A stretch of 64,000 nt of DNA, from NCBI GenBank assembly GCA_024405735.1, contig JAKSOF010000007.1:1-64000 (forward strand). The letters are read 5' to 3'. Positions 111 through 60,804 of this stretch are shown one piece after another. Each line of letters begins with the position of its first letter. Position 1 is the first letter of the stretch. Position numbers and translations under genes: made by a program. The notes under the pieces are model-generated. The model ran no database searches, was not told the origin of the DNA, and saw only the letters and a program-made list of their open reading frames with translations. Source of the DNA: Victivallaceae bacterium. GTDB taxonomy: Bacteria > Verrucomicrobiota > Lentisphaeria > Victivallales > Victivallaceae.

Positions 111-139
111 TTGCCTATCCGGTATTTTGAGAGTATATT
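111..139 (+). promoter_or_regulatory. Sigma70-type promoter for the activase/dehydratase gene
   Basis: TTGCCT at 111-116 and TATATT at 134-139 are separated by 17 nt. Transcription would start near 146, leaving a leader of about 26 nt that carries the GAGG-type ribosome site before the ATG at 172. Confidence 0.5.
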
Positions 140-171
140 ATGAGTATGAAAATTTTTTTAATGAGGTTTTT

Positions 172-2268
172 ATGGATTCCGGCAAAAATTACTACATGGG
201 GATCGACATCGGTTCGACCACCTTTAAAGTCGTTGTGCTTAACGAAAAGAACGAAATCGTCAACCACACCTATCAGCGTACACGCCCCGTTGAGACTCAG
301 CGTCTCGCCTGTTCCGGTCACTGCTCTTCCTGCGGCAACTGCAATTTAGGCTCCATCGGCAAATCGCTCAACGCCTTTTTGACGGAGTGTGATCTCGCGC
401 TGTCGGATATCGCCTGTACGATCGTGACCGGCAGTCAGATCGTCGACGGATTGCGGCGTTTCGTCCCATACGATCAGCAGGTGAGCGAAGTTTCCGCACA
501 CGTCGTCGGCGCGCGGCACTTCCATCCCGACATCGACGCGATCATCGACTGCGGCGGGCAAGACAGCAAGTGCATGGTCTTCGATCCCGCGATGAATATG
601 TGGATCTCGATGATGTCCGGCGTCTGCGCCGCCGGTACCGGCAGTTATCTTGACAGCGTTGCGGCAAAACTCGGCATCCCCGTCGAAGAGATCGCCGGCA
701 AGGTCAACTATGAAGCCGACACGGAATTCAGTTCGGTTTGCGCGGTGCTTTCCGCGACTTCGATCAACAAGTTCAAAAACCGCATCCCCATCGGCGATCT
801 GCTCGCCGGGGCATGCCGGGCGCAGGCGCGTACGATCCTCAACAGCGTCGGACAGCTTTTGCTCCATCAGTCCGGACGGCGCATCCTCTTTCAGGGCGGA
901 GTTGCTTCCAACGGCGCGGTCGCCCATTTCCTGAAAGAACTGACGGGAAGCGAGATCATCGTGCCCCGATACCACCAGGTGATGGGCGCTTTGGGCGCGG
1001 CTCTCCTCGCGCACCAGTACAAAGAGTTGCAAGGCAAGCTCGTCCTCGACAAGATACAATACGAACCGACGCCGCAAAAGTCGATCGCGATGCGGGTCAA
1101 CAATACCAAAAAAGATTTCTTTTCCCACGATAACAGCCGTCCGCTCGTCTGGCGCAACCTCTTTTTTCCGACCGAGATACTGCACGCGTTTGGTGCGCGC
1201 ATTCTGACGCTGGAAACGTATGCCTCGCTTTTCGGCAGGAACCGTAAAAGAGTAAAACAGGCGCTTGACATCGCCGCCCGCAAAGGCTTCGATCAGCAAA
1301 CTTGCTCCTTTTTGCGCATTCTTGAGGGGATCAAGCAGGAAAAACCCGCATTTGCCGTTTCCACCAGTCAGCCCTGTCAGCAGGGCGAACGCATTTTTGC
1401 CGACCTTGCGGAGGATCACGGCTTTGAAGACCGCTTTTTCTCGCTTCACACCCCCATCAACTCCTTTTTCTCCAACGCGGTCGAGCAGATCGCCGAAGGA
1501 TTGCAAAAGGCAATCGACATGATGGGCAAAACCTTCGGCAAAAAACTTGATATGAACAAGCTCGTCGAAGCGTGCGAATATTCCAATCAGGCGGCGGCAA
1601 TCAGCAAGAAATGCAATGAATTGCGCTGGACTTCGCCGCCTTTGATCCGCGGTTCCAAAGCCGTCTACAACGCCGTGATTTTCAGCCAGCTGTGGGGGCG
1701 ACCCGAGTTGGTGGAGATTCAAAAGGCGTATTACGAAGAACTCCTGATGAAAAAAGAGTGGGCGGAAAAACGCTACAAAATCGAAGACACCCACCGTTTG
1801 CTCTGGCTTCATCTGCCGCCGTTTTACGACAACGCGCATTTGGATTTCATCGAAAACAGCTGCAACGCGCCGATCGTTTTTGAGGAAACCAACTACGTCG
1901 GATGGGATCTTCTCGACCTCAAAGACCCGATCCGCTCTTTGGCAAAACGGTTGCTTTCAAGCGGCTTTCTCGATCCGAAACTGCGCGTCGAATACGTCAA
2001 AAAAGTTGTTCAGATGGCAAAAATCACGGGGTGCATTTTGTACACGCACGGTTTCGGCAGATGCAGTCTTGCCGATCGTCCCTTTACCAAAAAATTGCGC
2101 GCGGAATTGGAAAAGATCGCTCTTCCTCTGCTGACGCTGGAGGGCGATTGCATGGACGCTTCCATCGATCCCTGCTCCACCGGCACCAAGATCGCATCGT
2201 TTGTCGAAGCCCTCAATTTGAAACGCTACAACAATCTTTTCGGCAAAATCCGTCAGGAAATGGCGTAA
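172..2268 (+). CDS. Fused acyl-CoA dehydratase activase / 2-hydroxyacyl-CoA dehydratase-type (double-cubane) protein
   Basis: The 698-residue protein joins two partners that are usually separate. Residues about 8-300 are a BadF/BcrA-type ASKHA ATPase (IDIGSTT near 11-17), with the two cysteines that bind the shared [4Fe-4S] cluster in this family visible as VCAAGTGSYLD (C152) and SSVCAVL (C190). Residues about 340-690 resemble the HgdB/double-cubane-cluster (DCCP, YjiM-like) reductase fold, ending in a cysteine-rich tail (THGFGRC, GDCMDAS). Such pairs couple ATP hydrolysis to very low-potential electron transfer. A cysteine cluster at 47-57 (CSGHCSSCGNC) inside the ATPase domain is unusual. 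I chose ATG 172 because GAGG lies just upstream; an upstream TTG at 127 overlaps the promoter. The physiological substrate cannot be read from the sequence, and no dehydratase alpha subunit is adjacent. Confidence 0.85.
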   Translation: MDSGKNYYMGIDIGSTTFKVVVLNEKNEIVNHTYQRTRPVETQRLACSGHCSSCGNCNLGSIGKSLNAFLTECDLALSDIACTIVTGSQIVDGLRRFVPYDQQVSEVSAHVVGARHFHPDIDAIIDCGGQDSKCMVFDPAMNMWISMMSGVCAAGTGSYLDSVAAKLGIPVEEIAGKVNYEADTEFSSVCAVLSATSINKFKNRIPIGDLLAGACRAQARTILNSVGQLLLHQSGRRILFQGGVASNGAVAHFLKELTGSEIIVPRYHQVMGALGAALLAHQYKELQGKLVLDKIQYEPTPQKSIAMRVNNTKKDFFSHDNSRPLVWRNLFFPTEILHAFGARILTLETYASLFGRNRKRVKQALDIAARKGFDQQTCSFLRILEGIKQEKPAFAVSTSQPCQQGERIFADLAEDHGFEDRFFSLHTPINSFFSNAVEQIAEGLQKAIDMMGKTFGKKLDMNKLVEACEYSNQAAAISKKCNELRWTSPPLIRGSKAVYNAVIFSQLWGRPELVEIQKAYYEELLMKKEWAEKRYKIEDTHRLLWLHLPPFYDNAHLDFIENSCNAPIVFEETNYVGWDLLDLKDPIRSLAKRLLSSGFLDPKLRVEYVKKVVQMAKITGCILYTHGFGRCSLADRPFTKKLRAELEKIALPLLTLEGDCMDASIDPCSTGTKIASFVEALNLKRYNNLFGKIRQEMA

Positions 2269-2299: not shown

Positions 2300-2476
2300 T
2301 TACGCTTTTTTTGCATTTTTTCCCGATGGACAGCAGAAAAAGGTGAAAAGCATAATCAGAATGATGAAACTGCCACTGCCGAGCGCTCCGGTATCGAGAA
2401 GTGCGGACAAATTGATTTTTTCATTGAGGTGCAACACGGCGCCCAACGCCAGAATGATCCCCGTCAGCCCCTCTCC
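2300..2476 (-). pseudogene. Remnant of an OPT-family transporter (C-terminal end only)
   Basis: Read on the minus strand, this stretch encodes IAGEGLTGIILALGAVL, followed by a hydrophobic segment (GSFIILIMLFTFFCC) and a stop at 2300. The first string resembles the conserved SGLIAGE-type C-terminal motif of bacterial oligopeptide (OPT) transporters. Upstream coding sequence stops abruptly at about 2476, where a duplicated copy of the immunity-gene 3' end begins, so the transporter has lost most of its length. The family call rests on one remembered motif and is moderate. Confidence 0.5.
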
Positions 2477-2782
2477 GGCGATCAGGACTTCTTCTTTGTG
2501 AATAAAAATCAGGTTATCCGCACTGCGACCGATAAAGGAGGCGGCGAGTTTTTTCAACTTGCGTCGTGGTTGTTTGTCATTGATGATATGAGTGGGCCTC
2601 CGCAAAACCGGGTTCGCGCCCCCTGGTGGGATGAGCTAAAAAACAAAAATGCTTCTGTCAAAAAAGAGAATGCCCAATATATTTACACGCTTTTTCTTGA
2701 AGATGTGAAAAAATTTGCGACATTCGCTATTCCGGAAAGAGTATTTCCCCCCGATATGCCCGCAACAGATGCGGCATTTTAA
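2477..2782 (+). pseudogene. Truncated duplicate of the immunity-like gene at 4815-5369
   Basis: The last 100 or so codons (DQDFFFVNKN to ATDAAF and the stop) match the 3' part of the gene at 4815-5369 almost base for base, at an offset of 2587. The signal-anchor N-terminus is missing. Upstream of the junction the frame only runs through the antisense of the transporter remnant, so the long open frame starting near 2294 is a chimera and not a gene. Orphan immunity copies of this kind are common around polymorphic toxin loci; that link is inference. Confidence 0.75.
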
Positions 2783-2788
2783 GCAAAA

Positions 2789-2998
2789 GCCGTTTTGAGG
2801 GCGTTCTGATTCAGGGGAGGGGGCTTGGCGTATTGCGTCAACCTCCTTTTTCTTCAACGGGGAGCAAGCATTGCTGGACTTGGATCAGTACCGCGGGGAT
2901 CCACCGCCCGTTGACGGGAGGTGTTGCGGCGATTTAGAGGCAATTTGGGCAATGGACGCCCCTGATTTGCGTACTTCAATAACTGTTTTTCCACTTCT
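2789..2998. repeat. Repeat R1 (with R2 at 3521-3731 and partial R3 at 5376-5459)
   Basis: About 210 bp, nearly identical to 3521-3731. The first 84 bp also match 5376-5459. The unit starts at GCCGTTT.GAGGGCGTTCTG, contains GGGGAGCAAGCATT (the antisense of the dsbD 3' end, MLAPR-stop), then GGGGATCCACCGCCCGTTGACGG, which resembles an internal part of dsbD near 6356-6388. It ends with GTACTTCAATAACTG. The unit therefore looks like a dsbD 3' end with an internal deletion. Confidence 0.75.
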
Positions 2999-3031
2999 CT
3001 TCTCCAGTATCTGCGGTTATCACTAAAAACG

Positions 3032-3091: not shown

Positions 3092-3466
3092 ATGGCTTTG
3101 GGCAGTTGCTTGCGAATCACTTTTTTTTGCTTTACGGGAATTTTTTTCTTGTATACCCTTTTTTTTGAAATATGGCGGAAAAAATGGAAACGGCTTGCAC
3201 TTGATATTTTTGTCTACTTTATACAAATGCCGTTGTGGCTGGGGCTCGGAATTGCGATTTTGAGCGTTTCGCCGGATTTGATTTATTCTTACTTCGGCGC
3301 AATATGGCTGCTTGCCGGAATATTATTGTGGATTGCTCCTCATTCTGTCATGGCGATAAAGTCTATCCGCAGAAAAGACTGGCTGGATGCGGCATACTCT
3401 CTTGCGGGGGTATTGGCAATCATTTCTTTTTGTACTTTTATATATTTCCGGGATTATCGCGCGTGA
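3092..3466 (+). CDS. Small integral membrane protein, unknown function
   Basis: A 124-residue, strongly hydrophobic protein with about four membrane segments (roughly residues 7-25, 40-60, 65-85 and 101-118) and a basic loop (WRKKWKR) after the first. The reading frame extends upstream to a TTG at 3032, but a promoter overlaps that region and GGGGAA precedes the ATG at 3092. It sits between two copies of repeat R in the AT-rich island next to the candidate toxin. I do not recognise the family. A membrane-located immunity or accessory role is possible but only suggested by position. Confidence 0.6.
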   Translation: MALGSCLRITFFCFTGIFFLYTLFFEIWRKKWKRLALDIFVYFIQMPLWLGLGIAILSVSPDLIYSYFGAIWLLAGILLWIAPHSVMAIKSIRRKDWLDAAYSLAGVLAIISFCTFIYFRDYRA

Positions 3467-3520: not shown

Positions 3521-3731
3521 GCCGTTTGGAGGGCGTTCTGATTCAGGGGAGGGGGCTTGGCGTATTGCGTCAACCTCCTTTTTCTTCAACGGGGAGCAAG
3601 CATTGCTGGACTTGGATCAGTACCGCGGGGATCCACCGCCCGTTGACGGGAGGTGTTGCGGCGATCCTGGGGCAATTGGGGCAATGGACGCCCCTGATTT
3701 GCGTACTTCAATAACTGTTTTTCACTTTTCT
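3521..3731. repeat. Repeat R2
   Basis: Second near-identical copy of the R1 unit. It lies between the small membrane protein and the candidate effector. The remaining 3732-3898 is AT-rich and holds only the strong AAGGAG ribosome site of the next gene; I see no convincing promoter there. Confidence 0.75.
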
Positions 3732-3898: not shown

Positions 3899-4783
3899 AT
3901 GGATTTAGAAAAAATAAAAACGGAACTCAATCGTATCTCATTGCCACAATATATAAAATTTATCGCAGAGAATAATAGTAAAACATGTATTTGCTGCCAA
4001 CGGTGGAATGGTAAAATTTTTGAAAAAGAAGATTCTAATCGTCCCATATTACCTCTTCACCCGAACTGTCGCTGCAAATATCAAGATATTCCGACAAATG
4101 AAAAAATATTAAATTTTTATGAAGAAAAAAAACAAATTGTTGTAGTATTAACTGAAAAACACAATATTTTAACTGAGCAAGCAAACACTTTAGCAAAGCA
4201 GATTATTATTGCTAAAATGGAAAATAAAAAATTGGAATCTGAACCACTTTTTTTTATTTTTAATGGACGGTATTTGGCTTCGAGTGATGGAAATCTTGCC
4301 CTAAACGCAATATCAGGAAAGCCTGTTTCAGAAAAATTCTCACCTTGGTCAAAAATAAATATAATAGGGGCAGAGCAGACAGTCACAAGAACATTTGATT
4401 ATTCTTATGAACGTCAAGGAATAAAAAACGCGGGGGGAATTCCGGAAGGGGTATATTATATTTTAAAATCTGAAACACGCTCAATTATAACCAGTCCGAT
4501 ATCACATTTCTTGGGTCATAGCGGGTGGGGAAGCTATTCGTGGTCTTTACATCCTTGCGAAAATACAAACACAAGAGAGCGAAGTGGTTTTTTTATACAT
4601 GGCGGTAGCGAATCTACTTCTGCAGGCTGTATTGATCTTAGAGAACATGATATAACGTTTAATTCATTTTTACATCATTTTGCCAAGAAAAAGCTATATA
4701 TTTACATCAGTTATCCGGAGGAGAATATATCTGTCTCTGAAAAAAACATGATCTTACCGACTCTCAATTCTTGGGATTATTGA
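3899..4783 (+). CDS. Candidate secreted effector: MuF-like cysteine head plus Tlde1/DUF2778 L,D-transpeptidase-fold domain
   Basis: A 294-residue protein without a signal peptide. Residues 28-62 (CICC, WNGKIF, LHPNCRCKY) resemble the metal-binding tail of phage Mu F-type head proteins, a module often found on polymorphic toxins. After a coiled-coil-like linker (70-115), residues about 118-275 match the DUF2778/Tlde1 fold: GNLALNAISGKP, IPEGVYYIL and the active-site string FFIHGGSESTSAGCIDL with H234 and C244. From memory, Tlde1 of Salmonella uses a histidine and cysteine ten residues apart, as here. Tlde1 enzymes are type VI effectors that cleave or exchange D-amino acids in target peptidoglycan. 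AAGGAG precedes the ATG. The gene is AT-rich relative to its surroundings, consistent with recent transfer. No secretion genes are nearby. Confidence 0.7.
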   Translation: MDLEKIKTELNRISLPQYIKFIAENNSKTCICCQRWNGKIFEKEDSNRPILPLHPNCRCKYQDIPTNEKILNFYEEKKQIVVVLTEKHNILTEQANTLAKQIIIAKMENKKLESEPLFFIFNGRYLASSDGNLALNAISGKPVSEKFSPWSKINIIGAEQTVTRTFDYSYERQGIKNAGGIPEGVYYILKSETRSIITSPISHFLGHSGWGSYSWSLHPCENTNTRERSGFFIHGGSESTSAGCIDLREHDITFNSFLHHFAKKKLYIYISYPEENISVSEKNMILPTLNSWDY

Positions 4784-4814: not shown

Positions 4815-5369
4815 ATGAAAAGGGAACGCAAGGGAAAAACATATTGGATCCTCCGGGGGGTGTTGCCTCTTTTGATTTTGCTGCCGTTTATCAAGCCGGA
4901 AGCAACTTTTTTGATACTTTTCGGTGACAGGTACAATCGTTGCGGAAAAATTCCCGTATTCGCCGGAAAAAGTCTCTCCGATAATCAAAAAGATCAGGAC
5001 GTCTACATCTATAAAGCCCAAGATAAACCCTTCATTTTAGTTGGACCTTATACATTTTCACCTGGCGATCAGGACTTCTTCTTTGTGAATAAAAATCAGG
5101 TTATCCGCACCGCGACCGATAAAGGAGGCGGCGAGTTTTTTCAACTTGCGTCGTGGTTGTTTGTCATTGATGATATGAGTGGGCCTCCGCAAAACCGGGT
5201 TCGCGCCCCCTGGTGGGATGAGCTAAAAAACAAAAATGCTTCTGTCAAAAAAGAGAATGCCCAATATATTTACACGCTTTTTCTTGAAGATGTGAAAAAA
5301 TTTGCGACATTCGCTATTCCGGAAAGAGTATTTCCCCCCGATATGCCCGCAACAGATGCGGCATTTTAA
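4815..5369 (+). CDS. Candidate immunity protein, membrane-anchored and exported
   Basis: A 184-residue protein. A basic start (MKRERKGK) and a hydrophobic segment (residues about 11-36) form an uncleaved signal anchor or signal peptide. The remaining 150 residues are polar and would lie in the periplasm, where a peptidoglycan-acting toxin works. It follows the effector by 31 bp and has its own promoter. Its 3' half is duplicated at 2477-2782. No database family is recognised; the immunity role is inferred from position, topology and the presence of an orphan copy. There is no ribosome site upstream, consistent with leaderless expression. Confidence 0.55.
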   Translation: MKRERKGKTYWILRGVLPLLILLPFIKPEATFLILFGDRYNRCGKIPVFAGKSLSDNQKDQDVYIYKAQDKPFILVGPYTFSPGDQDFFFVNKNQVIRTATDKGGGEFFQLASWLFVIDDMSGPPQNRVRAPWWDELKNKNASVKKENAQYIYTLFLEDVKKFATFAIPERVFPPDMPATDAAF

Positions 5370-5375
5370 GCAAAA

Positions 5376-5459
5376 GCCGTTTGGAGGGCGTTCTGATTCA
5401 GGGGAGGGGGCTTGACGTATTGCGTCGGTTTCCTTTTTCTTCAACGGGGAGCAAGCATT
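5376..5459. repeat. Repeat R3 (partial copy, overlaps the dsbD 3' end)
   Basis: Matches the first 84 bp of R1 with a few differences. Its last bases encode the final codons and stop of dsbD on the opposite strand, so the repeat and the gene share sequence. Beyond 5459 R3 continues as normal dsbD sequence, whereas R1 and R2 jump to a more internal dsbD-like stretch. Confidence 0.7.
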
Positions 5460-6871
5460 ACCAGACCGGGCAGCCCCGGCAAGTTGTAACGCCGCAATAT
5501 TTCCCGCGTTTGACCGTCGCGGACGTCTTGCGCCTGAAATTTGACGAAAATCACGTTTTCAAGTGCGGTTTTGACTTCGTCATCCTGCAGGACTTCGCGG
5601 TCGAAAGTTTGACAGTTGCCGCACCACGTCGCCCAGAAATCGACGACGACAAGGCGATTTTCCTTTTTTGCACTCACAAGCGCGGCTTCCAGTTTGGCGA
5701 TTTCCGCTTGCGGCGAAACGTTTTCCCGCATCAGCCGGACGCCGGAAATTCCGTAACGGATCGCCGCGGTCAGCAATATCGCGGCAAAACCGTATTGGAC
5801 AAAAAGCATCACTTTGCCCGGTTTCGGCAATGCGGCGAGCCCCGCTCCGGCAAAGGGCCACGGCAACCCCATCCCGATCCCGAGCAGAAGCGGCAGAAAC
5901 AATCCCCAGCTTTCTCCGGCGGCGTAGCGTTCGGCGGAGGTCAGAAGCACCGCTCCGGCGACCGGGGCGACGCACGTGCCGGCAAGAAGCGCCGCCAGCG
6001 CTCCGAGCAGAAAAGCGACCAGTATCTTGCCGCCGCGCAACTTCCTCGCGTCGATGGCGGCGAGCCGGGAAAGGTCCAAATGGACGATCCCCGCCGTCGA
6101 GAATGCGAAAATCCCGAAAATGATGGCGACGCAAAAGTGAAAAACCGCCGACCCCGACCAGTCGCCGAAGCGCGCCCCCGTCAAAACGATGACCGCGCCG
6201 AGTATGCCGTAGGCGACCGCCATCCCCGAAGCGTAGGCGAAACCGCGCAATGCGCCTTTGCCGCCTTTTTCCGCCCCGATGATCGCGAGATTGACGGGGA
6301 TCATCGGCAAAACACACGGGGTGAGATTCAGCAGAAATCCCCCCGCAAGCACCGCGAGGATCCACAGCCAGTTGACGGGAGGCGTTGCGGCGGTTTCCGG
6401 CGCGGAGACATCATTGAGCCATGCAAGGAAATCTTTTTTGCTCATCGCTCCGGAAAAACTTTTGACCGTCTTGGCGCGCGTGATTTCAGGCGGCAGGCTT
6501 CCGGTCGATATCGGCGGAGCCGCGCCGCCGGTCACGTCAAAGGTGTGCGTTTCCGGCAAAAGACATAGCGGAACTTCCCCTTCTTTTGCCAGTTTGCATC
6601 CCTGATAGGAAACGGAAAAATTTTTTTCCGCCGAGACGCGCCAGCGCCAGACGCCGGATGGGAAAATTTTTTCTCCCTCTTTTTCGACCGGCGACGGTTT
6701 TTCGATGACAAATGCGCCGTCAAAGGAAACAAAATCCGCATCGAGATAAAAATTTTCCGCAACGGTGACTTCGACGAGCGTTTCCGCGCCCTGCGGTGCC
6801 GATCGCCATGTAAACGGCGCCGCCGTCAGCGCCGCCGCGATAAAAGAAAGACAAAAAAGCAGTTTTTTCAT
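5441..6871 (-). CDS. dsbD: Thiol:disulfide interchange protein DsbD
   Basis: A 476-residue inner-membrane protein that carries electrons from cytoplasmic thioredoxin to periplasmic thiols. Signal peptide at 1-18. The periplasmic alpha domain has C92 and C103. The membrane domain starts near 168 with LNLTPCVLPMIP (C186) and has the second redox cysteine in LAGTCVAPVAG. The C-terminal thioredoxin domain carries WCGNC at 416-420. The protein ends with GLPGLVMLAPR, about 20 residues shorter than I expect for the gamma domain, and this end lies inside repeat R3. A GGAG ribosome site stands about ten bases before the start. It converges with the immunity-like gene. Confidence 0.9.
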   Translation of the reverse strand: MKKLLFCLSFIAAALTAAPFTWRSAPQGAETLVEVTVAENFYLDADFVSFDGAFVIEKPSPVEKEGEKIFPSGVWRWRVSAEKNFSVSYQGCKLAKEGEVPLCLLPETHTFDVTGGAAPPISTGSLPPEITRAKTVKSFSGAMSKKDFLAWLNDVSAPETAATPPVNWLWILAVLAGGFLLNLTPCVLPMIPVNLAIIGAEKGGKGALRGFAYASGMAVAYGILGAVIVLTGARFGDWSGSAVFHFCVAIIFGIFAFSTAGIVHLDLSRLAAIDARKLRGGKILVAFLLGALAALLAGTCVAPVAGAVLLTSAERYAAGESWGLFLPLLLGIGMGLPWPFAGAGLAALPKPGKVMLFVQYGFAAILLTAAIRYGISGVRLMRENVSPQAEIAKLEAALVSAKKENRLVVVDFWATWCGNCQTFDREVLQDDEVKTALENVIFVKFQAQDVRDGQTREILRRYNLPGLPGLVMLAPR

Positions 6872-12702: not shown

Positions 12703-12778
12703 GCGAGTGTAGCTCAGTTGGTAGAGCATCACGTTGCCAACGTGATTGTCGCCGGTTCGATTCCGGTCACTCGCTCCA
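12703..12778 (+). tRNA. tRNA-Gly (GCC), copy 1
   Basis: 76 nt. Acceptor stem GCGAGTG/CACTCGC, anticodon loop TTGCCAA (GCC), T arm GGTTCGATTCC, encoded CCA. Confidence 0.95.
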
Positions 12779-12802
12779 TTTTTTATGTTGTGCATTTCAA
12801 GT

Positions 12803-12878
12803 GCGAGTGTAGCTCAGTTGGTAGAGCATCACGTTGCCAACGTGATTGTCGCCGGTTCGATTCCGGTCACTCGCTCCA
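12803..12878 (+). tRNA. tRNA-Gly (GCC), copy 2
   Basis: Identical to the first copy over all 76 nt, 24 bp downstream. Both are presumably made from the single promoter at 12660-12688. The identity points to recent duplication or gene conversion. Confidence 0.95.
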
Positions 12879-12880
12879 TT

Positions 12881-13724
12881 TTTTTTGCCTTGATGGCAAA
12901 AAAAGTGAAATGCGACGAAAGGCGCATTTCGTTTCACAGACGCGTCATCATTGCGTAATTTTGTCTTTTCCCGGGTGCATTCGTGTTTATTCGCGATTAA
13001 AAATACCGTCGGGCGGGGAAATACAGAGCGTGAGCGGTACAAAGAGAGGACAACCGTACCGGTTTTCCCCTCTTTGCAATCTTCCTTTTTCCTTGCGTCC
13101 GCGATTTGTGCGAATGGGGTAATTCCCTTAATTTCGTACGCCTGCGTTCGCCTCATTACATTCGGCTCACTCGCGGCTACCGTGCTCGTCTACGGTCGCA
13201 TTTCCCCCTTAAAATCTGCGATTTTCGGGGGAGCCCCCGCGCTCCCGCGCATTCCGTCTTCGCCCTGCGGGCTACGCCGTGACGAGCCGTTCCTCATTTG
13301 GCTTGTCCGCCATAGCCTTGGCGGAGGTGGATACTCGCGGCTTCGCGTATGGTAGTTTTTATTTTTCTTCCAACTGTTTGCGCATTTCCGCATTGCGGGC
13401 AATGCGTAAAATCGCTCCCATCCGACTGCGCGCTCGGCGGCAACCGCCTCGCATCCGACGGCAATTTAATGTGTGCGGTTTTTCATTTCGCCCGCAGGGC
13501 GAGAGAAACATCAGCGTGGGAGTATCGCATCTCGGGCAGTCGGGCGGACGGCGCGCGAAAGCGCGAAGTATTAGCCCGCGTGGGACGCCCGTCCTCTTTG
13601 CGGTAACAAACAGACGAGCCCGCAGAGATTTGCGGTGACATTCGTTTAGAGTGCGGACAAAACGATTATCCGCAAATATCTGCGGCAACTACAGATCCCG
13701 CCTGTGGCGGGCGCTTGGGGAGTT
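12881..13724. other. Gene-free stretch with hairpins and a dispersed repeat
   Basis: No open frame here has a plausible ribosome site or recognisable protein. The region has several perfect hairpins, for example GAAATGCG/CGCATTTC at about 12906-12931, TCCGCCA/TGGCGGA near 13306-13325 and CCGCAAA-type arms near 13670. It also carries one copy of the 38-bp dispersed repeat. It looks like accumulated repeat debris rather than a gene; a structured RNA is not excluded. Confidence 0.5.
12975..13012. repeat. 38-bp dispersed repeat, copy 1
   Basis: GTGCATTCGTGTTTATTCGC followed by GATTAAAAATACCGTCGG. It differs at two positions from the copy at 19099-19136. Confidence 0.7.
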
Positions 13725-18714: not shown

Positions 18715-18741
18715 TTTTTTCAAAAGCATTTGAAAAAATGG
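18712..18741 (+). terminator. Perfect hairpin that includes the tRNA-Leu CCA end
   Basis: CCATTTTTTCAAA and TTTGAAAAAATGG form a perfect 13-bp stem with loop AGCA. The left arm contains the encoded CCA, so the trailer can pair with the tRNA 3' end. It may act in termination or 3' processing. The right arm is also the start of the 127-bp tandem repeat. Confidence 0.55.
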
Positions 18742-19028
18742 TCCGCGTCAGGGACTTCTTGACGGGGTTGCCCTCGCTCCGCTTTGCTTCGCTCGCGCAC
18801 CTCGGCGGCTTCGCCGCCTCCGTCAAGTCCCTTGCTCGCGCAGGAAGTGGAATCGTTTGAAAAAATGGTACGGTCAAGGGACTTCTTGACGGGGTTGCCC
18901 TCGCTCCGCTTTGCTTCGCTCGCGCACCTCGGCGGCTTCGCCGCCTCCGTCAAGCCCCTTGCTCGCGCAGGAAGTGGAATCGTTTGAAAAAATGGTACGG
19001 TCAAGGGCCTTCTTGACGGGGTTGCCCT
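18729..19028. repeat. 127-bp tandem repeat, about 2.4 copies
   Basis: Units begin at 18729, 18856 and 18983 with TTTGAAAAAATGGT and are nearly identical; the third is cut at about 19028. Each full unit holds AAGGGACTTCTTGACGG-like and CCGTCAAG.CCCTT arms enclosing a GGCGGCTTCGCCGCC hairpin, so each can fold on itself. No protein is recognisable in any frame. Confidence 0.85.
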
Positions 19029-57517: not shown

Positions 57518-59122
57518 ATGAAGCATATATTCCGTAAGATGCTTGCCGCATCACTGTTCACCGCGCTGGCGGCGGGCTGTTCCGCGCCTGCCAAAAAACA
57601 TTTCGATGTCAAGGATTACGAATACGCGATGGGGGAAAAATACCTCGCGCAATGGAATGACGAGGAAAATGCGCGCATCGAGCGCGATATTGAAAAATAC
57701 CGCAAGGCGGACGGCGTTTTCGCGCTCGACGTTCCCGCCGGGACGGAGGTTCAAGTCGAGCAGACGCGCCACGCCTTCTTTTTCGGCGCGCACATCTTTG
57801 ACTTCGACCAGTTGCCGAGCGACGAAGCGAACGCGAAATTCAAGGCGATGTGGAAGGAGCTTTTCAACTCGGCGACGATCCCATTTTACTGGAAAGATTA
57901 CGAGCCCGAGCCCGGTTTTTACCGCGATGACGTGACGCCGGACAATACGCCGGAATTCTGGCAGAGTTGCAAAGAGCCGTACAAAGAGCGTTTCTACCGC
58001 AAACCGCCGGTCAAAGTATTGCTTGACTTCTGCGATGCCCATCATATCCGCAAACACGGGCATCCGTTGGTGTGGGGATGCAACACGTGTCTGCCCGCGT
58101 GGTATTGGGAGAAACTTCCCAAAGAGATCACGGAATCGGAATTTTTCAAAAAGAATTTTCAGTACAACGATCCCGCAACGAAAAAACTGGGGTGGACGAA
58201 CTACTGGTGCGTGACGGGAAATCTGACGGAGGAGCAGTTTGCCGAAAAGTTCCCCGATTACTGCAAATTCGTCAATGATTCGTTTATGAACCGCGTCGTC
58301 AATATCTGCAAAAAATACGGCGACCGCTTCGACTCTTGGGATGTCGTCAACGAGAGCGCCGTCGACACGATGCCGCGCGAGTATCTCGGGGGCGCGCCGC
58401 GTATGGTGCCGGGCGGCAAAATCACCAAAAGCATCTACGGCGCGATGCCGGGCGATTACGTCTACCGGAGTTTCAAGATCGCGGCGGAAAATCTGCCCGA
58501 CCGTGCATGGCTTAACATCAACGATGTGCCGTACCAATATAAAAACGCCCTTTACGTCGAGCAGATCAAAAATCTTTTGAAACGCGGCGCGAAAATCGAT
58601 GTCATCGGTTGCCAGATGCATATTTTCCGCGCCTCCGATACCGAGGCGATCGCCAAGGGCGAGGGGGAATTGAAAGGCGAAGCCGGCGATCAAAGTCCCG
58701 CGATGGTACGGGGTGCGTTGGAGCCTTTGATGGAGATCGGGAAACCCCTCCATTTGAGCGAGATTACCATTATGGCGCCGGGCAACGATGCGCGCGGCGA
58801 AGCGATCCAGGCGGTGATCGCCTACAACTTGTACCGGCTGTGGTTCAGTTTGCCCGCGATGAATGGCATCACCTGGTGGAACACGGTCGATTTCCGCAGT
58901 CACTTCGAGTGTTTCCCCTCCGGCATCCTGCGTCCCGATATGAGCAAAAAGCCGGTTTACTTCGCGCTCGACGATCTCATCAACTGTCAGTGGAAAACGA
59001 AATTGACCGTCAAAGCCGACAAGGACGGCAAAATTTCCTTCCGGGGATTCCGCGGCACGTATCGCGTGACGTGGCAAGACGCCGACGGCAAATGTCGGGA
59101 AAAGACGGTCGAACTCAAATAA
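57518..59122 (+). CDS. GH10 xylanase-like lipoprotein, paralog A
   Basis: A 534-residue lipoprotein; the lipobox is LAAGC near residue 21. The GH10 barrel has the acid/base glutamate in SWDVVNES and the nucleophile in LHLSEITI. HGHPLVWG, at the family's substrate-binding strand, is conserved. The last 80 residues (VYFALDDLIN to the end) form a small beta-domain. It shares almost identical terminal segments with the next gene. AGGAG precedes the ATG. Confidence 0.88.
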   Translation: MKHIFRKMLAASLFTALAAGCSAPAKKHFDVKDYEYAMGEKYLAQWNDEENARIERDIEKYRKADGVFALDVPAGTEVQVEQTRHAFFFGAHIFDFDQLPSDEANAKFKAMWKELFNSATIPFYWKDYEPEPGFYRDDVTPDNTPEFWQSCKEPYKERFYRKPPVKVLLDFCDAHHIRKHGHPLVWGCNTCLPAWYWEKLPKEITESEFFKKNFQYNDPATKKLGWTNYWCVTGNLTEEQFAEKFPDYCKFVNDSFMNRVVNICKKYGDRFDSWDVVNESAVDTMPREYLGGAPRMVPGGKITKSIYGAMPGDYVYRSFKIAAENLPDRAWLNINDVPYQYKNALYVEQIKNLLKRGAKIDVIGCQMHIFRASDTEAIAKGEGELKGEAGDQSPAMVRGALEPLMEIGKPLHLSEITIMAPGNDARGEAIQAVIAYNLYRLWFSLPAMNGITWWNTVDFRSHFECFPSGILRPDMSKKPVYFALDDLINCQWKTKLTVKADKDGKISFRGFRGTYRVTWQDADGKCREKTVELK

Positions 59123-59202
59123 CCGGAAATCCAACGAATTCCCGCATTTGAAACGTCTTGCAGTTGCGGAGTTTATAAAAATTAACGGAAACGATAAAGC
59201 CG

Positions 59203-60804
59203 ATGTTTTTATCAAAAAAAGCAGAAAAGATGAAAAAGGAGTTGTTGCTTGCGGCGATCGTCGCCCTGACGGCGGGGTGTTCGGCACCCGTGACAAAGCA
59301 TTTCGACGTTAAGGATTACGAGTATGCGATGGGGGAAAAGTACCTCGCGCAATGGAATGACGAGGAAAACGCGCGCATCGACCGCGATATTGAAAAATAC
59401 CGCAAGGCGGACGGCGTTTTCGCGCTCAACGTTCCCGAAGGAACGAAAGTTCAGGTCGAGCAGACGCGCCACGCCTTCCTCTTTGGTGCGCAATGCTTTA
59501 ACTACCGGCAGCTGGAGTCGGCAGAAAAAAACGCCGCTTATGAAAGGCTCTTTCAAACGCTTTTCAACGGTGCGACGATCCCGATGTTCTGGAAGGAGTC
59601 CGAACCCGAAAAGGGCAAACTCCACACCGGTTTTTCCGCGGACGACTGTGTGGATTTCTGGGCGGTTTGCTCCGATCGTGAAAAACAGCGTTTTTGGCGC
59701 CGTCCGGCGATTACCCCGATCATCGATTTCTGCGACCGCAACGATCTGCGCAAGCACGGACACCTCTTTTTCTGGGGCAACACCCGCCGCAACGTGCCGA
59801 ACTGGCTTTTGAAAGACATCCGCGAACGCTACTTTGCACGTCCCGTCGTCGCCGCAAAAGTGAAGTGGGTCGACGAAGCCCGTACGATTCCCGATGATTT
59901 GACCTACAACGCCATTTTTGAAGAGATGACGCCCGAGGAATTTGCGAAAAAAGAAAAGGAGTTCGTCGCTGAACTCGATCAACTCTGGTTCGATCACATG
60001 AATCAACTGATCCGGCTGTACGGCAACCGCATCGACAGTTGGGACGTCGTCAACGAGGCGTCGATTGAAATGCGTCCCGACGAAAACGGCAACGCGCGGC
60101 TCGTCGAAAATTCGGCGATCTGCCGCAGTTTTTACGGCCCGATGCCGGGCGATTACGTCGCGCGCGCTTTTCTCTGCGCCAAGATGAAACTGCCCGAATC
60201 GGCAAAACTTTTCATCAACGACTACGCGATGTGCGACAGTACGATGCAGCAACTTTACGTCGACCTGATTTCGCAGTTGAAAAAACGGCAGTGCCGTATC
60301 GACGGCATCGGGTGTCAGGTGCACCTCTTTCAAAAACAGGTCGTGCGCGAGATGATCGGGGGAAAAAGCGATTATCATTCTCCCCGTTGGGTGCGCGACG
60401 CTTATCAAAAGTTATCGGCGCTCGATACCCCGATCCGCATCAGCGAGATCACGATTCCCGCATTGACCTGTGATGAAAAGGGCGAAGCGGAGCAGGCGGT
60501 GCTGGCGTACAATTTGTACCGGCTTTGGTTCAGCCTGGAAAAAGTCGAGGGGATCACCTGGTGGAACCTCATCGACGGCTTGACCGCCGGCAAGGAAAAG
60601 ATGTTTTCCGGCATCTTGCGTCTCGATATGAGCAAAAAGCCGGTTTACTTCGCGCTCGATGATCTCATCAACCGTCAGTGGAAAACGAAATTGACCGTCA
60701 AAGCCGACAAGGACGGCAAGATTTCCTTCCGGGGATTCCGCGGCACATATAAAGCAACGTGGAAAGAAGGGGGAAGGGAAAGAGTTGTAAGTTTTAAGTT
60801 ATAA
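59203..60804 (+). CDS. GH10 xylanase-like lipoprotein, paralog B
   Basis: A 533-residue paralog of the preceding gene; the lipobox is LTAGC near residue 27. Catalytic glutamates are in SWDVVNEA and RISEITIP; HGHLFFWG replaces HGHPLVWG, so subsite binding may differ. The N-terminal and C-terminal segments match paralog A nearly base for base while the middle is divergent. The last codons (VVSFKL and the stop) come from the left arm of the palindromic element at 60787. A second ATG at 59230 is an equally good start; neither has a clear ribosome site. Confidence 0.85.
   Translation: MFLSKKAEKMKKELLLAAIVALTAGCSAPVTKHFDVKDYEYAMGEKYLAQWNDEENARIDRDIEKYRKADGVFALNVPEGTKVQVEQTRHAFLFGAQCFNYRQLESAEKNAAYERLFQTLFNGATIPMFWKESEPEKGKLHTGFSADDCVDFWAVCSDREKQRFWRRPAITPIIDFCDRNDLRKHGHLFFWGNTRRNVPNWLLKDIRERYFARPVVAAKVKWVDEARTIPDDLTYNAIFEEMTPEEFAKKEKEFVAELDQLWFDHMNQLIRLYGNRIDSWDVVNEASIEMRPDENGNARLVENSAICRSFYGPMPGDYVARAFLCAKMKLPESAKLFINDYAMCDSTMQQLYVDLISQLKKRQCRIDGIGCQVHLFQKQVVREMIGGKSDYHSPRWVRDAYQKLSALDTPIRISEITIPALTCDEKGEAEQAVLAYNLYRLWFSLEKVEGITWWNLIDGLTAGKEKMFSGILRLDMSKKPVYFALDDLINRQWKTKLTVKADKDGKISFRGFRGTYKATWKEGGRERVVSFKL

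What the first reader, a model, noticed from the sequence alone, without database searches (positions are those of the whole stretch)
2477..2998. Orphan immunity fragment and recombination junction with a transporter remnant
Seen: 2477-2872 matches 5064-5459 almost exactly, and the duplicated stretch starts mid-gene against the antisense of an OPT-like C-terminus. Inferred: a copy of the immunity-gene 3' end plus flanking repeat was inserted into, or replaced, a transporter gene. Such orphan immunity debris is a usual sign of effector turnover.
Basis: partly seen in the sequence, partly recalled or inferred. Interest (0 to 1): 0.6.

Follow-up and report, generated by a model that had tools for sequence, protein, structure and literature searches.

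The report
Scar of toxin-immunity gene turnover
In a Lentisphaerota bacterium, a spot beside the dsbD gene holds debris from repeated swapping of antibacterial toxin and immunity genes: a broken immunity gene fused to a transporter stump, an intact orphan immunity gene still carrying the last codons of its lost toxin, and one complete toxin-immunity pair.

Summary
2477-2872 repeats 5064-5459 with 389/396 identical bases, and its left edge is fused to the antisense 3' end of an OPT transporter gene. The fragment is the last 101 codons of the immunity gene (4815-5369) that follows an intact effector (3899-4783; short MuF-type N-terminus, Tlde1 L,D-transpeptidase C-terminus). It lacks the membrane anchor and a proper start, so it is debris. 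No OPT gene remains elsewhere in the assembly, so the transporter was removed rather than interrupted; the join lies in up to 9 bp of microhomology. The strongest evidence of turnover lies just outside the reported span: the membrane gene at 3092-3466, between two copies of a terminator/dsbD-end repeat, has a homologue directly behind a different MuF-type effector in another genome. DNA similarity to that locus begins inside that effector's last codons (3006-3026), so the window keeps the stump of a lost effector next to its retained immunity gene. The process is known from Vibrio T6SS arrays. No sister strain was available to date the event.

The parts
127..2268 (+). Left flank: intact BadF-type ATPase / 2-hydroxyglutaryl-CoA dehydratase D-component fusion, not part of the array
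   Evidence: PF01869 8e-30, PF06050 6e-45; closest relative G016 has no array beside it
2300..2485 (-). Stump of an OPT transporter gene (about the last 61 codons plus stop)
   Evidence: 42% over 50 aa to the C-terminus of the G018 OPT protein (PF03169 1e-36); no OPT HMM match in own assembly
2477..2485 (.). Junction of OPT stump and immunity fragment: GGCGATCAG fits both parents (up to 9 bp microhomology; OPT side inferred from protein conservation LIxGEG)
2477..2782 (+). Duplicated 3' end of the immunity gene (codons 84-184 plus stop); pseudogene, anchor and start lost
   Evidence: 1 synonymous difference from 5064-5369; 9 of 28 invariant family positions lie in the missing part
2783..2991 (.). 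Repeat R1: terminator hairpin 2813-2853, dsbD 3' end 2854-2872, decayed internal dsbD piece 2887-2935 (88%), 3' tail of unknown origin
3006..3026 (+). Stump of a lost second-type effector: last 6 codons and stop (S-I-C-G-Y-H-stop against R-I-F-G-Y-H-stop)
   Evidence: DNA similarity to G117 (L180), 83% over 106 nt, E 1e-27, runs from here through the intergenic stretch into the membrane gene
3092..3466 (+). Intact small membrane protein gene; orphan immunity gene of the lost second-type effector
   Evidence: Homologue lies 66 nt behind a second-type MuF-N effector in G117 (L180) and one ORF behind another in G032 (L094)
3521..3723 (.). Repeat R2, same anatomy as R1; hairpin 3545-3585
   Evidence: 95% identical to R1 over 216 nt, identical from 2797 to 2932
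3899..4783 (+). Intact effector: short MuF-type N-terminus (CxxC...LPxHPxCRC) and C-terminal Tlde1 domain with HGG...SAGCIDL
   Evidence: Tlde1_dom PF10908 7e-9, above cut-off; MuF end below cut-off in Pfam and NCBIfam
4815..5369 (+). Intact immunity gene, 184 aa: N-terminal hydrophobic helix plus beta-rich domain
   Evidence: Homologues lie behind this effector type at 7 loci; structure model weak (pLDDT 64.5)
5376..5459 (.). Repeat R3: terminator hairpin 5400-5440 between the convergent immunity gene and dsbD, plus dsbD 3' end
   Evidence: Folds as in R1/R2; all 5 hairpin differences keep pairing
5441..6871 (-). Intact dsbD, right-hand boundary and source of the dsbD pieces in the repeats
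   Evidence: DsbD_TM 1.7e-25; fructose-bisphosphate aldolase adjoins dsbD in G026, G008 and G018, where this genome has the array

Best explanation
The span is a recombination scar in a small effector-immunity turnover array docked at the 3' end of dsbD. Shown: the array holds, left to right, an OPT stump, an immunity 3' fragment, R1, the last codons of a lost second-type effector, that effector's immunity gene, R2, an intact Tlde1-type effector with its immunity gene, and R3/dsbD. Inferred: a Tlde1-type cassette carrying its downstream terminator and a piece of dsbD was placed in front of an older cassette. It removed the older effector down to its last codons and kept the older immunity gene. 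Later unequal recombination between the shared terminator/dsbD-end repeats multiplied the block. Finally a deletion at up to 9 bp of microhomology joined the OPT 3' end to codon 84 of the left immunity copy, removing most of OPT and the left effector. The retained intact membrane gene probably still protects against the second-type toxin; the 101-codon fragment probably does nothing except serve as homology.
For: Near-identical 396-bp repeat, unique in the genome. R1 follows the R3-side alleles in the immunity part but R2 alleles at 2828 and 2840-2843, so it is a hybrid with a switch between 2524 and 2828. R1/R2 carry dsbD pieces with amino-acid changes (W to G, L to R, L to P), i.e. a decayed copy. 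The lost-effector stump and its immunity gene match an intact effector-immunity pair in G117 at 83% DNA identity. No OPT is left in the assembly. GC is 33% (effector) and 42-44% (immunity genes) against 55.5% for the window, fitting foreign cassettes. Orphan immunity genes recur in relatives: G029 keeps an intact immunity gene behind only 32 residues' worth of effector; G005, G000:C12, G032:C2 (two genes) and L110 have none; L112 has the immunity gene at the end of an array behind a second-type effector. The process is described for Vibrio T6SS loci, with homology-facilitated illegitimate recombination proposed (PMC5361080).
Against: No sister strain with an intermediate or ancestral layout was found, so the order of events is inferred. 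The OPT parent sequence at the junction is known only from protein-level conservation. R2's path to its position needs more than one event. Immunity function of either gene is inferred from position only.
Confidence: 0.75

Rival explanations
1. One reading: a copy of the immunity 3' end plus repeat was inserted into, or directly replaced part of, the OPT gene in a single step.
For: The junction is abrupt and lies mid-gene on both sides. A replacement by homology-facilitated illegitimate recombination would leave one microhomology end and one homologous end.
Against: No other OPT part survives in the window or assembly, so it is not an interruption. The copy's right side continues into R1 and an older immunity cassette.
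Confidence: 0.14
2. Assembly artefact: the contig end 1-2476 was wrongly joined at a repeat, or strain variants were collapsed.
For: The window starts at a contig end (C24:1), and the copies share 271 identical bases between the differences at 2524 and 2796.
Against: The chimeric join rests on only 9 matching bases, far below an assembler's usual overlap. The copies differ at 7 sites, and R1 has its own allele at 2796. The membrane gene next to its effector stump is syntenic with G117 independently of this join.
Confidence: 0.08
3. The chimeric ORF 2294-2782 is a functional gene made by shuffling.
For: It is open for 162 codons and its immunity part has only one, synonymous, difference.
Against: It starts at a TTG inside antisense OPT sequence, lacks the anchor helix and 9 of 28 invariant family positions, and no relative has it. 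The event is too recent for the single difference to show selection.
Confidence: 0.03

Closest known systems
T6SS immunity-gene arrays of Vibrio cholerae formed by sequential effector displacement (Kirchberger et al. 2017, PMC5361080)
   Same: Old immunity genes and effector 3' ends kept downstream of a newly placed effector-immunity module; heterogeneous immunity genes in one array; homology on one side and illegitimate joining on the other
   Different: Here the conserved boundary found is a terminator plus dsbD 3' end on the downstream side; effectors are short MuF-N proteins; no T6SS sheath gene (VipB) was found in this assembly; duplication clearly contributed
Recombination between tandem T7SS immunity paralogues in Staphylococcus and Streptococcus (PMC9484751)
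   Same: Homologous recombination between repeated blocks expands and trims an immunity cluster
   Different: There the repeats lie in the immunity genes themselves; here they lie in the flanking terminator/dsbD end
Tlde1 / Tldi1 (T6SS L,D-transpeptidase effector and immunity, Salmonella; PMC9638812)
   Same: Effector C-terminus matches the Tlde1 domain above its cut-off and keeps HGG...S.GCI
   Different: N-terminus is MuF-like; similarity of the immunity protein to Tldi1 was not tested
MuF polymorphic toxins of temperate phages (PMC5576092)
   Same: MuF-type N-terminus joined to varied toxic C-termini, with a small gene downstream
   Different: Only the cysteine/histidine end of MuF is present, below the Pfam cut-off; no phage head genes beside the effector in the stretch read

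Membership tests
Effector-displacement immunity array | Intact orphan immunity gene of another effector type in the array | tested here: met
   3092-3466; homologue directly behind a second-type effector in G117
Effector-displacement immunity array | 3' remnant of the displaced effector in front of the kept immunity gene | tested here: met
   3006-3026, part of an 83% DNA match over 106 nt to G117
Effector-displacement immunity array | Alternative module states at the same locus in other strains | tested here: inconclusive
   No strain or species with the same flanks found among 34 genus genomes; nearest DsbD is 63% identical
Tlde1 effector family (PF10908) | Score above curated cut-off and catalytic His/Cys motif | tested here: met
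   36.6 bits against 30.1; HGG...S.GCIDL kept in the Tlde1-type rows of A3
Tlde1 effector family (PF10908) | Peptidoglycan-cleaving activity in the periplasm | not testable with these tools
   No experiment possible
T6SS effector | T6SS in the genome | tested here: not met
   No VipB (PF05943) match in own assembly, 97% complete; other T6SS or injection parts not tested
MuF polymorphic toxin | MuF domain above cut-off | tested here: not met
   18.8 bits against 29.6 (PF04233); 32.9 against 39.65 (TIGR01641)
MuF polymorphic toxin | Shared N-terminus with exchangeable C-termini | tested here: met
   Window effector and L094 align only over residues 1-68; the second-type effectors L180, L094 and L112 align with one another over their length
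OPT transporter family (PF03169) | Profile match | tested here: inconclusive
   The stump alone is too short for a hit; homologous to the end of a protein that matches at 1e-36
Mobile repeat element | Copies at unrelated places in the genome | tested here: not met
   R occurs only in this locus

The most novel reading that the evidence does not exclude
Lentisphaerota carry a distinct polymorphic-toxin class: small stand-alone effectors with a minimal cysteine/histidine MuF end as N-terminal sorting tag, varied C-terminal toxins, delivered by a route other than a classical T6SS, with immunity arrays that grow and shrink by recombination at flanking repeats.
Probability: 0.35. Interest if true: 0.55.

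Novelty: new member of a known kind. Interest (0 to 1): 0.4.

Why it matters
It records at base level how an effector-immunity locus turns over: one effector stump, one kept immunity gene, one broken immunity copy and the repeats that mediated it lie within 3.5 kb. It extends effector displacement, described in Vibrio T6SS clusters, to short MuF-N effectors in uncultured gut and rumen Lentisphaerota, and names two candidate immunity families to test.

Tried and rejected
Chance similarity: rejected (389/396 identical). Mobile repeat: rejected, R occurs only here. RNA gene: no Rfam match in R; the whole R1 is not unusually stable (z -0.56), but its terminator hairpin is (z -2.8). Synteny with HGD-D or dsbD relatives for dating: no genome shares the layout. 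Weak OPT hits in G043 and G055: a 685-aa protein that I read as an ion antiporter, not OPT, so dropped. The G008 OPT gene runs into a contig end before the informative C-terminus. Immunity fold: weak model and no significant PDB match. PADLOC: nothing meaningful. Reading the R 3' tail as more of the lost effector: protein similarity looked suggestive, but the DNA match starts only at 3006, so not claimed. Viral contigs: only the MuF motif matched (residues about 3-142 of the effector, mostly 17-70), as expected of phage head proteins.

Full report
The window is G000:C24:1-64000 of a 1.89-Mb, 97% complete assembly. Homologous loci in public records are named Lentisphaerae, Lentisphaeria or Victivallaceae MAGs, several from rumen or gut. 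The first 7 kb read: an intact 2-hydroxyacyl-CoA dehydratase/activase fusion (127-2268), the array discussed here, then intact dsbD (5441-6871, minus), tRNA-Lys, a short gene and ileS-like sequence.

Observation. 2477-2872 equals 5064-5459 at 389 of 396 positions. One difference, synonymous, is in the immunity-coding part and six are in the flank. Identity begins exactly at 2477, codon 84 of the 184-codon gene 4815-5369. On the minus strand the sequence left of the join ends an OPT transporter: LIAGEGLTGIILAL... aligns with LITGEGLMGIALAI... of a G018 protein that matches PF03169 at 1e-36. The bases 2477-2485 (GGCGATCAG) are compatible with both parents, so up to 9 bp of microhomology. No OPT profile match exists in this assembly, and only 2 of 34 genus genomes have one. 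OPT was therefore lost, not split.

The repeat. The flank R occurs three times. It holds a hairpin followed by a T run, a terminator between convergent genes. R1 and R2 hairpin stretches fold at -22.8 and R3 at -20 kcal/mol, and all five hairpin differences keep pairing, mostly through G-U. Next come the last 19 bases of dsbD; then R1 and R2 have a 49-base piece 88% identical to dsbD 6348-6396, with radical amino-acid changes, so a decayed dsbD copy with an internal deletion. R1 and R2 are identical from 2797 to 2932, while R3 differs there; the immunity part next to R1 is the R3-side sequence. R1 is thus a recombinant whose switch point lies between 2524 and 2828 (inferred). R is found nowhere else in the genome, and no long copy in the genus.

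The cassettes. The intact effector 3899-4783 has a C-terminal Tlde1 domain (36.6 bits, cut-off 30.1) with the HGG...SAGCIDL motif, and an N-terminus resembling the end of MuF proteins, below cut-off. Relatives show one N-terminus with at least two C-terminal types, the design of polymorphic toxins. The immunity family (DFFFVN...DKGG) follows the Tlde1-type effector at seven loci, counting this one; one of these effectors looks frame-shifted and one is only a C-terminal half. At six other loci (seven genes) no such intact effector adjoins: G029:C11 keeps only a 32-residue remnant, and G005:C358, G000:C12, G032:C2, L110 and L112 have none. G013 cannot be judged because its contig ends there.

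The orphan. The gene 3092-3466 encodes a small membrane protein. Homologues: G016, G032, G117, G129 intact; G011 and G114 as fragments. In G117 it starts 66 nt behind a second-type MuF-N effector; in G032 it lies one ORF behind another. The window aligns to the G117 DNA at 83% over 106 nt (E 1e-27), starting in the last codons of that effector...RIFGYH* against ...SICGYH* at 3006-3026, and running into the membrane gene. Hence the window once had that effector, and only its last codons remain. This is direct evidence of effector turnover, stronger than the fragment that prompted the finding.

Mechanism. Shown: the order of pieces, the joins, and the hybrid R1. Inferred: a cassette carrying its downstream terminator and part of dsbD displaced the older effector and left the older immunity gene in place, as proposed for Vibrio T6SS arrays (PMC5361080). 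Recombination between repeats then duplicated parts of the block, comparable in kind to T7SS immunity clusters (PMC9484751), and a microhomology deletion fused OPT to the left immunity copy. The low GC of the effector (33%) and immunity genes (42-44%) against 55.5% for the window fits imported cassettes. Three relatives have fructose-bisphosphate aldolase beside dsbD, where this genome has the array.

Function. The fragment lacks the anchor helix and 9 of 28 invariant positions, and its only open frame starts in antisense OPT sequence; it is most likely dead. The membrane gene is intact and probably still protective (inferred). No VipB sheath gene was found, so delivery is open.

Limits. No sister strain was found, reads were not available, and immunity function rests on gene position. 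The structure model of the immunity protein was too weak to use.

Verdict. Real, largely as reported, but a known kind of process. Its value lies in the unusually complete record and in an effector family that is little described in this group.

Noticed in passing
57518-60804: Two adjacent genes for lipoprotein-like 534- and 533-aa proteins share near-identical ends (253 nt at 85%, 161 nt at 93%) but diverge between; they look like endo-xylanase-type glycoside hydrolases after tandem duplication.
   Followed up: no
18724-18977: A 127-nt direct tandem repeat (94%) directly behind tRNA-Leu(tag).
   Followed up: no
12703-12887: Two tRNA-Gly(gcc) genes 100 nt apart, 99% identical including the trailer.
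   Followed up: no
L092 329-4385: In relative G026, ORFs resembling Cas9 (1038 aa) and Cas1 (311 aa) and a repeat array lie beside the aldolase-dsbD pair, so this neighbourhood may collect defence and conflict genes.
   Followed up: no
L112 2476-6471: In MAG SIG78 a second-type MuF-N effector is followed by three membrane protein genes and then an immunity gene of the Tlde1 type: another mixed immunity array.
   Followed up: partly
L102 961-2478: In G006 the Tlde1-type effector is split by a frameshift while the downstream immunity gene stays intact.
   Followed up: partly
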